A stretch of 64,000 nt of DNA, taken from a virus. Both the position numbers and the translations under genes were made by a program. The stretch covers positions 27,435 through 91,434 of the IMG/VR virus record IMGVR_UViG_3300046028_005224; one strand, 5' to 3'. The notes under the pieces were generated by a model, which was not told the origin of the DNA, made no database searches, and was given only the letters and a program-made list of their open reading frames with translations. This document shows, piece by piece, positions 48,836 to 52,745 of the stretch; position 1 is the stretch's first letter; each line of letters starts with the position of its first letter.

Positions 48836-49875
48836 TATCCTACCTCACATGCTTCTCTATAAATTTCCTCTATGTGGTGCATTATTGTTTTTTTGTTTAG
48901 AGAGATATCAGAATCCTCAACATATTTGTTTAGAATTGAAATAGTATCTTCAATTTGAGTAAGGTCTACATCATCAACATCGTTGACTGAAAAATTTTCA
49001 ATTACTTTAACTTCGTGACAATCAGACGCAAGCAACTTATCAAGAAAATGATTGTATTTGGCTTGATTTGTTTTCTTGTCAACAATTAACTTAACATATT
49101 TATTTGCACATTCTCTGAAGTCATACAGCTGATGATTTGTATCGCTGTAATTAATCTTCTTGAAAAGTTCAAATGGATTATTGATTGTAGTTAACTTTAA
49201 AGTTTCAGTATCAAAGATGTGAAATCCTCGATTGTCATCACAATCATTCCAATACATTTGATAGGGATTTCCCAGGTAAAAGATTTTTCCGTTATTAGAT
49301 CTTGTATGATAGTGCCCAGAAAAAACTCTTTTAAATTTAGAGAAGATTTGAGGATCTAGCCCAGTGTCTTGAACCATTCCACGATACATGGAAAACCCAC
49401 TTAACTCTAAATGTCCCATCGCTACTTTTGCTTTGGTACTCTCAATCATTCTCATTGTGAGACTTTCATTTTCTTCGTTAATCCAAGGAATAAAAAGAAT
49501 TTGAAGATCACCAACTACAAGTTCAGTTGGTTCATGAATCTTAGTTACGTTATCATATTTGTTTAGAAGAATATCTGCTGTATTGAATTGATTGGTATTT
49601 TTATAATAAGCGGTATGATTACCAATGACAGTCCAGACATGAACTTTCATCTTTTCCAATCTATCGTAATAATTTTTCTTTGCCCAATCAAGGCTCCATA
49701 AATCAATTACTTTACGACTATCAAAAGTATCTCCAAGATCAAAAACCATAGAGATGTTTTCTTTTTCTAGTGTTGGAAAAAACACTTCATTGTAAAATTT
49801 TTGGAAGTAATCATGGTAAATTTTACTTCCTTTTTTAACGCCAAAATGCTGATCTGTAATAATAGCTACTTTCAT
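48835..49875 (-). CDS. 47: Recombination endonuclease subunit (gp47-like, Mre11/SbcD family)
   Basis: A 346-residue metallophosphoesterase with the expected motifs: ITDQHFGV, FDLGDTFDSR, IGNHTAYY, MGHLELSG and VFSGHYHTRS. Forms the nuclease complex with gp46. It overlaps the gp55 stop by one base. Confidence 0.95.
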   Translation of the reverse strand: MKVAIITDQHFGVKKGSKIYHDYFQKFYNEVFFPTLEKENISMVFDLGDTFDSRKVIDLWSLDWAKKNYYDRLEKMKVHVWTVIGNHTAYYKNTNQFNTADILLNKYDNVTKIHEPTELVVGDLQILFIPWINEENESLTMRMIESTKAKVAMGHLELSGFSMYRGMVQDTGLDPQIFSKFKRVFSGHYHTRSNNGKIFYLGNPYQMYWNDCDDNRGFHIFDTETLKLTTINNPFELFKKINYSDTNHQLYDFRECANKYVKLIVDKKTNQAKYNHFLDKLLASDCHEVKVIENFSVNDVDDVDLTQIEDTISILNKYVEDSDISLNKKTIMHHIEEIYREACEVG

Positions 49876-50357
49876 CAGTTATACGTCATTTTTTGATGGA
49901 CATTACTTTTAATAGTATTGTAATCAGAATCACTAGAGTCTAAAATATTTCCATCAGAAACAAACACTTCGTCAAATCCAGATTGCTCTAAAATTTTAGT
50001 TTTAATATCTAGCTGACGCTTTTCTTTTTCAATTCTACGAAGGAATGCATAGTAAATAATTTGAGTAAAGTATGCGAAGGGATTGCCACGATTGATATCA
50101 AAGTTATCAATATACTGAACACAGTTTTCTACACCATCACATATCATGTCTTCACGGAACATGTAGTTGACAAAATTTGGTTTGTATGATAGGTGTGTTG
50201 CAATCTTGAGGAAACACTCACCAATGTATCTTGGGATACGTGGTCTTGGGTCACCTCGATCCTTTGCCTTATTGACTGATGTTTTGAAGTCAGTCAGTGC
50301 CTCAAGGAACTGTTTGTTATTGACGTAGTGTTCTGCATTAGCCCTTCGTTTAGCCAT
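49875..50357 (-). CDS. 55: Late-transcription sigma factor (gp55-like)
   Basis: Started at ATG 50357 (MAKRRANAEHYVNNKQFLEA), 160 residues. The region GNPFAYFTQIIYYAFLRRIEKEKR resembles sigma-70 region 2 for -10 recognition. It directs host RNA polymerase to NATAAATA promoters with the gp45 clamp. T4 gp55 has 185 residues. It follows a promoter at 50380-50408. Confidence 0.92.
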   Translation of the reverse strand: MAKRRANAEHYVNNKQFLEALTDFKTSVNKAKDRGDPRPRIPRYIGECFLKIATHLSYKPNFVNYMFREDMICDGVENCVQYIDNFDINRGNPFAYFTQIIYYAFLRRIEKEKRQLDIKTKILEQSGFDEVFVSDGNILDSSDSDYNTIKSNVHQKMTYN

Positions 50358-50379: not shown

Positions 50380-50408
50380 ATTCTAACATAAAAAGGGGGA
50401 CTTGACAA
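50380..50408 (-). promoter_or_regulatory. Sigma-70-like promoter of gp55
   Basis: Minus strand TTGTCA (50403-50408), 17 bases, TAGAAT (50380-50385), 23 bases before ATG 50357. It overlaps the plus-strand promoter at 50402-50430 at the -35 boxes. Confidence 0.65.
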
Positions 50409-50430
50409 GACTCCCGAATATGGCTATAAT
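50402..50430 (+). promoter_or_regulatory. Plus-strand sigma-70 promoter, perfect consensus, antisense direction
   Basis: TTGACA (50402-50407), 17 bases, TATAAT (50425-50430) on the plus strand. No plus-strand gene follows. A transcript from about 50437 would run antisense to the gene at 50462-50854 and to uvsW. An ACCTT-TGCT-AAGGT hairpin lies at the expected start. Confidence 0.68.
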
Positions 50431-50461
50431 ACCTTTGCTAAGGTTGATAAAAATATCTTTA

Positions 50462-50854
50462 TTAATTATTAGAGGATTTATAGAGTTTCTCTAAGTCTTT
50501 TCTGTATTCCTCTAGTTTAGATATGTATCCCATCTTTCTAGTAGGTTTTATCTTACCAGAACCAAACTGTACTTCCTTTACATATTGATCATAGACAGAG
50601 ATTATCTTTTCATCTGTAACCTCACACATTGTAATAACATCATCCATATCAACAAAGTGCATTGTCTCTCCTGCATATTTAATCCAAGGTTCAACACGTA
50701 CAACTGTACCTAATGGAGTATCATGTTCTTTCATAACAATAGGATTATCAAGAATTAAAATGATACCAGTATCTTCATCTGATGCACATACGGAAGAAAT
50801 TACTTCCTCACCTGTTCTTAACTTTATAGATGCTAAGAAATCGTCTTCTATCAT
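50462..50854 (-). CDS. Hypothetical protein, 130 aa, Sm-like character
   Basis: A 130-residue protein: strand-rich core FLASIKLRTGEEVISSVCAS, GIILILDNPIVMKE, VVRVEPWIKYAG and DVITMCEVTDEKIISVYDQY (quoted in parts), then a basic helical tail. The strand order recalls Sm-like folds, as for the gene at 36345-36653. It overlaps the uvsW stop by four bases. Conserved-looking cyanophage gene without known function. Confidence 0.7.
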   Translation of the reverse strand: MIEDDFLASIKLRTGEEVISSVCASDEDTGIILILDNPIVMKEHDTPLGTVVRVEPWIKYAGETMHFVDMDDVITMCEVTDEKIISVYDQYVKEVQFGSGKIKPTRKMGYISKLEEYRKDLEKLYKSSNN

Positions 50855-52314
50855 TTTTTCATACTAACTGTAACAATTTCATAATTAAATGATTCTTCAT
50901 TATAAATTTTAATTCTTTCCATAAGATGATTAAGAGTATAGTTTCTTAGATTTTTTGTTGAAATGTCATCAGAGATATCATAAAGAACAGCTTTTTCTTT
51001 TTGATTTCCTTTTCTTAATACTCTACCAATACTTTGAAGATTTCTGATTCTTGATTTGGATGGTGAGGCAAAGATAACATTGTGAAGGTTTTTGATGTTG
51101 ATACCTGTACTGAATGTTCCGTAAGAAGCAATGATTATTGCATTGTTTTCAAGCTCTGTAATCTTTCTTACTTCCTCACGTTCCTCAGCATCAACACCAC
51201 CATAAACAAAAAATACTTTACGATCATTTGTTACGCTACTATTTATTATGTCATAAATGACCCGTCCATGAGTGTTGACCCTACTATAGAGAATCAAGGT
51301 ATTACCTTTTAAATCAAGGCTTAAATTTTTAATAAAATTATTTCTTTTAGAATGGGAAATCAAATATTGAATTTCATCTTCATAAGTGTTAAACTTTTGA
51401 GCCTCATGCTTAAGCAATAAAATTTTAATGTCAAGTTTTGATATATGTCCTTTATCAATTAACTCCTTTGTCTTGGTTACCTTGTATGAAGGTCCAAATA
51501 AACCTTCTAAAATCCACTTATGTGTTTGTGTTCCATCCAATGTTCCAGTAAAACCAAAACGATATTTACAATCTAAAAGTTTGGTCATGATGTCAACCAA
51601 AGATTTTGATTTAAACAAATGTGCTTCGTCACCAATAACAACATCAAAACCTGAATACCAATTTTTCTCCAACTTGTAGATAGATTGCCAAGTTGTAATT
51701 GTTATTGGCATTTCATTGCTTTTTTCTCTTCCTGAATAAATTTTATGACAATAATTTTCAACATCCCAACCATAGTCTTGGAAATCCTTGTACATTTGTT
51801 CAACGAGAGAAGTTGTTGGAACAACAATAAGAATTGACATTCCCTTTTCAGCATAATATCTGACAACGGAATAAATCATTAAAGATTTACCAGATGCTGT
51901 GGGTGAAATTAAAAGACCTCTGTTGTATCTTAGAGCCCTGTAGACTGCATCCAGTTGATAATCCCTGGGAGGATACTTTGAAATCTTTTTCATGTAATCC
52001 GTGACACCTTCACGAGATATCATGTCATTAATTTCAAATGGCACTCCATAAAATTTGCTATCACGAAACTCATAAGTATAATTTAATTTTTCACAAAATG
52101 CTATAACTTTATCTAATAGTCCAACATAAATTTCTCCTGTATGTGTGGAGAACAATCGTATTTTTCCATCCCAAAATCTTCTACGATATTGGGGCATGAA
52201 TTTTGCGTTAGGTACTTCAAAGGTAAATCTATCTGAAAGTTCTTGTAATACGTGTGGTTCTGATTGGATCTTTAGATAGACTTCATTCTTTTTAGAGATA
52301 ACTAAGTGACTCAT
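50851..52314 (-). CDS. uvsW: DNA/RNA helicase UvsW
   Basis: Started at ATG 52314, which overlaps the uvsY stop (TGATG); 487 residues. An N-terminal DNA-binding part (1-105) is followed by SF2 motifs: ISPTASGKSL (I), VIGDEAHLF (II, DEAH), FGFTGTL (III), LILYSRVNTHG (IV) and QSIGRVLRKG (VI). It unwinds R-loops and branched DNA and helps switch replication modes. Confidence 0.95.
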   Translation of the reverse strand: MSHLVISKKNEVYLKIQSEPHVLQELSDRFTFEVPNAKFMPQYRRRFWDGKIRLFSTHTGEIYVGLLDKVIAFCEKLNYTYEFRDSKFYGVPFEINDMISREGVTDYMKKISKYPPRDYQLDAVYRALRYNRGLLISPTASGKSLMIYSVVRYYAEKGMSILIVVPTTSLVEQMYKDFQDYGWDVENYCHKIYSGREKSNEMPITITTWQSIYKLEKNWYSGFDVVIGDEAHLFKSKSLVDIMTKLLDCKYRFGFTGTLDGTQTHKWILEGLFGPSYKVTKTKELIDKGHISKLDIKILLLKHEAQKFNTYEDEIQYLISHSKRNNFIKNLSLDLKGNTLILYSRVNTHGRVIYDIINSSVTNDRKVFFVYGGVDAEEREEVRKITELENNAIIIASYGTFSTGINIKNLHNVIFASPSKSRIRNLQSIGRVLRKGNQKEKAVLYDISDDISTKNLRNYTLNHLMERIKIYNEESFNYEIVTVSMKK

Positions 52315-52745
52315 CAACTATAACCAGCAGTAAATTTTTGAAATTCGATGGCATTCTTAATTTGATAGGTTCTATTAAGAATTACTTTAAGAATGTCTTC
52401 AATATAATTTATCATAGTTTCATAAAGCTCAGTTTTCAGTTTCATGTCAGTAAGTTTTTTATCTGCATCTAGATAACGAACCATACTTTCTTTATCACGA
52501 ACTTTAAAAGGAAAAGGTTCCACGGTATAAACTTCAGGATCTGCTTTGCCACTGTAATATTCATGTCGATCTTTTTTAACGACACTCATGTCATAGTAAT
52601 TTTTCTTACTTAGTAATTTTAAATTGTTATAAATTTTGAAATATTTTGCATGTAATTGTGGAATCTTTAAAGATTCTAAATGTAAATTATCAGGATCAAT
52701 AACAGAGTCGGTTTCCCACATATCCTGAATTTCATCAAGGGTCAT
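52314..52745 (-). CDS. uvsY: Recombination mediator UvsY
   Basis: A 143-residue UvsY protein: TLDEIQDMWETDSVIDPDNL start, LKLLSKKNYYDMSVVKKDRH, then a C-terminal helix with MINYIEDILKVILNRTYQIK. It loads UvsX onto single-stranded DNA. Length matches T4 UvsY (137). Confidence 0.95.
   Translation of the reverse strand: MTLDEIQDMWETDSVIDPDNLHLESLKIPQLHAKYFKIYNNLKLLSKKNYYDMSVVKKDRHEYYSGKADPEVYTVEPFPFKVRDKESMVRYLDADKKLTDMKLKTELYETMINYIEDILKVILNRTYQIKNAIEFQKFTAGYS

What the first reader, a model, noticed from the sequence alone, without database searches (positions are those of the whole stretch)
50380..50430. Perfect-consensus promoter pointing antisense to the uvsW region
A plus-strand TTGACA-17-TATAAT shares its -35 region with the opposite-facing gp55 promoter. 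No plus-strand gene follows, so it would make an RNA antisense to the 130-residue gene and uvsW, or compete with gp55 transcription. Because gp55 controls the late switch, such a divergent overlap could time late expression.
Basis: partly seen in the sequence, partly recalled or inferred. Interest (0 to 1): 0.62.

Follow-up and report, generated by a model that had tools for sequence, protein, structure and literature searches.

The report
Conserved antisense promoter beside gp55
Next to the gene that switches on the late genes, this virus of cyanobacteria has a strong promoter pointing the wrong way, and nearly every relative examined, including one that infects an unrelated bacterium, has kept it; that suggests an overlooked switch in how these abundant viruses time their genes.

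Summary
Window 50402-50430 (+) is a 12/12 sigma70 consensus (TTGACA-17-TATAAT). It shares its -35 with the opposite-facing gp55 promoter (TTGTCA-17-TAGAAT), and no plus-strand gene follows.

It is not chance. All 203 distinct cyanophage gp55 upstream regions scored have an antisense TTGACA (invariant), a 17-18 bp spacer and a TANNNT -10, against about 0.007 per 150 nt expected. S-PM2, P-HM2, S-RSM4 and the Pelagibacter phage HTVC008M have it too. A dyad whose arms co-vary is centred on the predicted start site. The same promoter-plus-dyad occurs elsewhere in many of these genomes before other genes (phrog_718, cpeT), with half-sites matched within each genome. I infer a promoter class with a phage-specified operator.

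The antisense promoter is -35-type; gp55's is extended -10-type (TGn 179/203 against 12/203). The two usually overlap. In HTVC008M and the L014/L501 type they do not, yet the antisense promoter persists beside the gene upstream of gp55.

Best model: a regulated antisense promoter holding down uvsW/Sm-like read-through and, in most lineages, gp55, until the late switch. Transcription and timing were not tested. I found no prior description; the Syn9 transcriptome paper was not available.

The parts
50402..50407 (+). -35 hexamer TTGACA of the antisense promoter
   Evidence: 12/12 consensus; TTGACA in 203/203 distinct cyanophage gp55 upstream regions
50425..50430 (+). -10 hexamer TATAAT of the antisense promoter, 17-bp spacer
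   Evidence: TANNNT at 17 bp (199) or 18 bp (4) in all 203 regions; logo T,A,N,A,A/C,T
50431..50444 (+). dyad ACCTT-TGCT-AAGGT over the predicted start site, operator-like
   Evidence: aligned consensus AACnnTGTnAGGGTT(C/G)A; arms co-vary (z 6.8 against re-assorted arms); half-sites matched across copies within a genome; HTVC008M has AGGCA-TG-TGCCT in the same place
50437..50437 (+). predicted antisense transcription start (G, 7 nt after the -10)
   Evidence: spacing inference; G in 93% of aligned sequences; not measured
50403..50408 (-). -35 (TTGTCA) of the gp55 promoter, palindromic with the antisense -35
   Evidence: geometry class -1
50380..50388 (-). extended -10 (TGT-TAGAAT) of the gp55 promoter
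   Evidence: TGn in 179/203 homologous sense promoters against 12/203 antisense
49875..50357 (-). gp55, late sigma factor (160 aa)
   Evidence: phrog_234 E=3.6e-64
50462..50854 (-). 130-residue Sm-like gene opposite the start of the antisense RNA
   Evidence: phrog_471 E=1e-30; Pfam Sm_like E=3e-4, below its cut-off
50851..52317 (-). uvsW helicase, also opposite the antisense RNA
   Evidence: Pfam UvsW_N, ResIII, Helicase_C

Best explanation
A genuine, conserved antisense promoter used by host RNA polymerase with its main sigma factor. It is one member of a small phage promoter class that carries an operator-like dyad over the start site. Proposed mechanism: while the dyad is unoccupied (early infection), polymerase fires strongly into the 3' end of the uvsY-uvsW-Sm-like unit. 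Antisense RNA and head-on polymerases then hold down read-through of that unit, and in most lineages the same polymerase sterically blocks the overlapping gp55 promoter. Later a phage protein that binds the dyad, or a phage change that disfavours -35-dependent promoters, silences it; the extended -10 gp55 promoter and the uvsW unit are released and late expression follows. Shown: sequence, conservation, usual overlap, dyad co-variation, membership of a class. Inferred: transcription, timing, the dyad-binding factor, repression.
For: Antisense TTGACA-17/18-TANNNT in 203/203 distinct regions, collected by protein homology and not by motif, against about 0.0068 per 150 nt background. Information sits in the hexamers, the start site and the first ~14 transcribed nt while most of the spacer drifts. 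Present in S-PM2, P-HM2, S-RSM4, MED4-213, S-CREM1, S-SKS1 and HTVC008M, P-SSM2, P-SSM4, S-RIM2, S-RIM12, ACG-2014a, Sf-CH5 and Syn9. Dyad arms co-vary. Genomes with several copies share half-sites although spacers differ (within against permuted P<=1.5e-4). Other copies drive sense genes: phrog_718 in 23/24 loci, cpeT. Promoter asymmetry: TGn in 179/203 sense against 12/203 antisense. The antisense start lies 7-51 nt from the stop codon of the gene upstream of gp55 in all but one of 203 regions (1 nt there).
Against: No transcript data. No dyad-binding protein identified: phrog_718 was not found in P-SSM2 or DSL-LC02/03 although they keep the element. No terminator-like signal bounds the antisense RNA (9/173, shuffled 10), so its extent is unknown. 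Overlap with the gp55 promoter is not universal (HTVC008M, L014/L501), so the gp55 limb is not the invariant part. The distance from antisense start to gp55 start falls into groups near 54, 64 and 72-80 bp without one helical phase, which does not favour a simple activator of gp55. The dyad is loose in some lineages (for example ACGAGTGTGCGAGTT). Phylogenetic relatedness is not removed in the co-variation and half-site tests.
Confidence: 0.5

Rival explanations
1. Promoter competition is the point: the antisense promoter exists to occupy DNA shared with the gp55 promoter, a mutually exclusive divergent pair, and its RNA is a by-product.
For: Overlap in all 203 regions measured, with the -35s crossing, coinciding or back to back. 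In the coincident class the antisense side always keeps TTGACA and gp55 accepts TTGTCA.
Against: Antisense promoter kept where there is no overlap: HTVC008M (-35s about 64 bp apart) and L014/L501 (gene inserted). A conserved start site and first ~14 transcribed nt are not needed for mere occupancy.
Confidence: 0.2
2. The antisense RNA protects or stabilises uvsW-Sm-like mRNA against host RNase E, as has been proposed for antisense RNAs of an unrelated cyanophage.
For: Antisense transcription is reported in Kyanoviridae and linked by some authors to mRNA protection (PMC10976474). The RNA would cover exactly this mRNA.
Against: Does not explain the operator-like dyad or the sense copies in front of phrog_718 and cpeT. 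No synonymous constraint in the overlapped coding region, though a simple duplex would need none.
Confidence: 0.12
3. A non-coding transcript that primes replication (R-loop origin), as at T4 origins, next to uvsY/uvsW.
For: Location beside uvsW/uvsY, and a strong promoter without a gene.
Against: No GC-skew turn at the locus in Syn9, S-RIM2, P-SSM4 or DSL-LC03. Other copies of the promoter drive ordinary genes.
Confidence: 0.06
4. A trans-acting small RNA or a small protein is made from it.
For: The first ~14 transcribed nt are conserved.
Against: No Rfam match near gathering level, no excess synonymous constraint downstream, no terminator and no consistent ORF; the conserved part straddles the start site.
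Confidence: 0.06
5. Fortuitous bidirectionality from the palindromic -35, without function.
For: CTTGACAAG gives TTGACA/TTGTCA by symmetry in the window.
Against: Both antisense hexamers are conserved when the sense -35 has moved away, in about two thirds of regions and in HTVC008M, and the antisense -10 is not part of any symmetry.
Confidence: 0.02

Closest known systems
Overlapping divergent promoter switch, B. subtilis plasmid pLS20 Pc/Pr (PMC4207663); lambda PR/PRM (from memory)
   Same: Divergent promoters of different type that overlap, with an operator nearby
   Different: There both promoters drive genes and the regulator is known; here one side makes only antisense RNA, the regulator is unknown, and overlap is lost in some relatives
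lambda p_aQ, antisense promoter that delays the late regulator Q (from memory)
   Same: An antisense promoter tied to the timing of the late-gene regulator
   Different: p_aQ lies inside Q and makes RNA antisense to Q; this one points away from gp55 into the genes before it, and no activator such as CII is known
CfrI antisense RNA of cyanophage S-PM2 at psbA (described in PMC2984593 and PMC5931967)
   Same: Antisense RNA in a T4-like cyanophage
   Different: Different locus (psbA and a homing endonuclease gene)
T4 early and middle promoters (MotA/AsiA switch)
   Same: The same problem: timing sigma70 promoters before gp55
   Different: Cyanomyoviruses lack motA and asiA (PMC2984593, PMC5780444); the -35 here is TTGACA, and the dyad lies at the start site

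Membership tests
sigma70-type promoter | TTGACA, about 17 bp, TATAAT-like hexamer | tested here: met
   12/12 in the window; conserved in 203/203
sigma70-type promoter | makes a transcript in vivo | not testable with these tools
Overlapping divergent promoter switch | two promoters too close for simultaneous occupancy | tested here: met
   all 203 regions measured, the window included; but not in HTVC008M or L014/L501
Overlapping divergent promoter switch | a regulator decides between the two | tested here: inconclusive
   operator-like dyad with co-variation between copies, no protein identified
lambda p_aQ-type antisense control of the late regulator | RNA antisense to the late-regulator mRNA | tested here: not met
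   transcription runs away from gp55
T4 middle promoter | MotA box in place of a -35 | tested here: not met
   perfect TTGACA in the -35 position
T4 late promoter | TATAAATA -10 without a -35 | tested here: not met
   TATAATAC with a perfect -35
T4 R-loop origin | replication start primed by the transcript | tested here: inconclusive
   no GC-skew turn; replication starts not mapped
Known structured RNA (Rfam) | match above gathering score | tested here: not met

The most novel reading that the evidence does not exclude
T4-like cyanophages and related pelagiphages, which lack MotA and AsiA, use a self-made regulon of -35-dependent early promoters, each with an operator over its start site. Its universal member is an antisense promoter at the boundary between the late block (capsid genes to uvsW) and the gp55-47-46 block. 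Silencing of this regulon is the early-to-late switch, with extended -10 promoters such as gp55's taking over.
Probability: 0.25. Interest if true: 0.85.

Novelty: new variant of a known kind. Interest (0 to 1): 0.64.

Why it matters
How T4-like cyanophages pass from early to middle to late expression without MotA/AsiA is an open question (PMC2984593, PMC5780444). This element is more constant than the gp55 promoter itself, sits exactly at the late-sigma gene, and defines a small promoter class with matched operator-like sites. It gives a concrete handle: a start site to look for in existing RNA data, a DNA probe for fishing out the regulator, and a single -10 to mutate.

Tried and rejected
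Considered and set aside: (1) chance consensus; conservation excludes it. (2) A hidden plus-strand gene: no consistent ORF, median longest 39 aa. (3) An Rfam RNA: none at gathering level. (4) Constraint on the antisense RNA body: relative synonymous entropy at the Sm-like 3' end (0.864 for the last 30 codons, 0.884 for the last 15) is about that of the rest (0.869). (5) A terminator shaping a small RNA: no excess. (6) A replication origin by GC skew: no turn. (7) The dyad as a hairpin in sense RNA: G-T pairs on the antisense strand, which would be C-A mismatches in sense RNA, outnumber the reverse 43 to 1 (not corrected for shared descent); the first arm lies before the predicted antisense start, so a DNA-level site is more likely. 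A free search for any 5-bp dyad was uninformative against shuffles; only the positioned and arm-re-assortment tests were. (8) phrog_718 as the regulator: not found in phages that keep the element. (9) A second HTVC008M copy of its dyad: none. (10) Literature: searches found no description; the Syn9 transcriptome paper (Doron 2016) is not held. A whole-record file of the window's genome was not available.

Full report
What is there. The window lies in a 91.4-kb IMG/VR viral record of a T4-like cyanophage; the nearest isolate is Synechococcus phage DSL-LC03. At 50402-50430 (+) is TTGACA-17-TATAAT, 12/12. On the other strand gp55 has TTGTCA-17-TAGAAT with a TG one base before the -10. The two share CTTGACAAG. 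Downstream on the plus strand there is no gene; the polymerase would run antisense through a 130-residue Sm-like gene and uvsW. It is the only perfect plus-strand consensus in the record; five others point the other way. The general promoter scan of the surrounding 20 kb does not exceed shuffles (63 against 65), so the score alone proves little.

Conservation. I collected gp55 loci by protein homology, without reference to the motif, added loci found through the Sm-like protein and isolates, and looked upstream. Of 208 distinct upstream regions, 203 have the antisense promoter: TTGACA in all 203, spacer 17 bp in 199 and 18 bp in 4, -10 of the form TANNNT. The other five are L014 (below) and four outside the marine cyanophage group: BUCT-ZZ01, Ochrobactrum OC, Stenotrophomonas Mendera and RB49. 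The first three show no Sm-like match, and the last three leave at most 40 bp between gp55 and the gene before it. The background rate of the same motif on the antisense strand of these loci is 0.0068 per 150 nt. The aligned sequences carry information in the -35, the -10, the start site (T-G, 7 nt after the -10) and about 14 nt beyond, while most of the spacer drifts. S-PM2, P-HM2, S-RSM4, MED4-213, S-CREM1 and S-SKS1 all have it. Pelagibacter phage HTVC008M (Kyanoviridae, alphaproteobacterial host) has antisense TTGACA-17-TATAAT in the same gene order, uvsW - hypothetical gene - element - gp55.

The dyad. The start site is the centre of an imperfect inverted repeat: AACnnTGTnAGGGTT in most, ACCTT-TGCT-AAGGT in the window, ATGAG-TGTG-CTCAT and ACGA-GTGTGG-TCGT in others, AGGCA-TG-TGCCT in HTVC008M. 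A free search for any 5-bp dyad is uninformative against shuffles, but the centre is at the same place in nearly all, and pairing of the true arms exceeds re-assorted arms (z 6.8, 0/1000). This control does not remove shared descent. The first arm precedes the predicted start, so a DNA-binding site is likelier than an RNA hairpin.

A promoter class. A scan with the dyad core found the same promoter-plus-dyad in front of other genes. In the complete genomes where the gp55 copy was detected, the element occurs one to three times: at gp55 (antisense), and in many also before phrog_718, a 67-71 aa protein of unknown function, and before cpeT. Upstream of phrog_718 it is present in 23 of 24 loci. 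Within a genome the half-sites match (for example AACCAT in S-RIM2, AACACT in Syn9, AAACC...GAGGTT in P-SSM4) although spacers differ; within-genome similarity exceeds permuted pairings (P <= 1.5e-4; 13 genomes, some closely related). I read this as an operator co-evolving with a phage protein not yet identified. phrog_718 is probably not it, since phages in which it was not found keep the element.

Relation to gp55. In all 203 regions the two promoters are close enough to exclude simultaneous occupancy; the sense -35 lies -10 (84), -1 (71) or mostly +7 to +15 relative to the antisense -35. The two differ in type: gp55's promoter has the extended -10 (TGn) in 179/203, the antisense one in 12/203, while the antisense one alone has an invariant -35. 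The share of TGn among strong sense promoters genome-wide is about 20-40%. A phage factor that weakens -35 recognition would therefore shift the balance from antisense to gp55; this is inference. But overlap is not essential to conservation: in HTVC008M the -35s are about 64 bp apart (counted from the sequence), and in L014/L501 a 181-aa ORF lies between, while the antisense promoter remains beside the Sm-like gene. Its invariant relation is to the gene end: the start lies 7-51 nt from that stop codon in all but one of 203 regions.

Mechanism. The element marks the boundary between the capsid-to-uvsW block and the gp55-47-46 block. In Syn9, S-RIM2 and P-SSM4 I saw no strong sigma70 promoter directly before uvsW, while gp55 has one. 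The favoured model is that this promoter fires early, suppressing uvsW/Sm-like read-through by antisense RNA and collision, and usually gp55 by occlusion, until its dyad is bound or -35-dependent initiation is disfavoured. Keeping UvsW off early would make sense because in T4 it removes R-loops that prime replication (established knowledge of T4, not tested here). The antisense RNA shows no excess synonymous constraint, terminator or ORF, consistent with the act of transcription or simple pairing mattering more than a folded product. Transcription, timing and repression are untested.

Known or not. Overlapping divergent promoters and antisense control of late regulators are known kinds (pLS20, PMC4207663; lambda, from memory), and an antisense RNA at psbA is known in S-PM2 (PMC2984593, PMC5931967). 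I found no description of this element in seven searches of the open library; the Syn9 transcriptome paper, which as far as I recall mapped start sites, is not held and may list it. I therefore call it a new variant of a known kind.

Noticed in passing
L436-L459, S-RIM2 KX349252:48312, Syn9 NC_008296:52741: The phrog_718 small-protein gene (67-71 aa, unknown function) carries the same TTGACA-17-TANNNT-dyad promoter in 23 of 24 loci; a candidate regulon member.
   Followed up: partly
S-RIM2 KX349252:13278, S-RIM12 KX349326:13780, G007:12546; L279:2686: The same promoter-plus-dyad stands before cpeT, or before a tRNA-like sequence followed by a cpeT-like ORF, in several cyanophages.
   Followed up: partly
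L319, L325, L341, L354; L346, L353: The same promoter-plus-dyad stands before a RusA-like resolvase-family ORF (phrog_244) and before a SegE-type GIY-YIG ORF.
   Followed up: partly
L332, L357: Further copies of the element point against long ORFs on the opposite strand, so antisense use may not be limited to gp55.
   Followed up: no
L014 2398-2950, L500, L501, L502: A 181-aa ORF, possibly an oxygenase (not checked by profile), is inserted between the antisense promoter and gp55; gp55 has its own promoter there.
   Followed up: partly
window 50462-50854: The 130-residue gene is named 'methylamine utilization' in most records but matches Sm_like weakly; an RNA-binding role seems likelier than the database name.
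   Followed up: no
window 13485, 15429, 17235 (minus strand): Perfect or near-perfect sigma70 promoters stand directly before tRNA-like sequences.
   Followed up: no
Syn9 NC_008296:58902 minus strand: A second perfect antisense consensus promoter (18-bp spacer) without the dyad.
   Followed up: no
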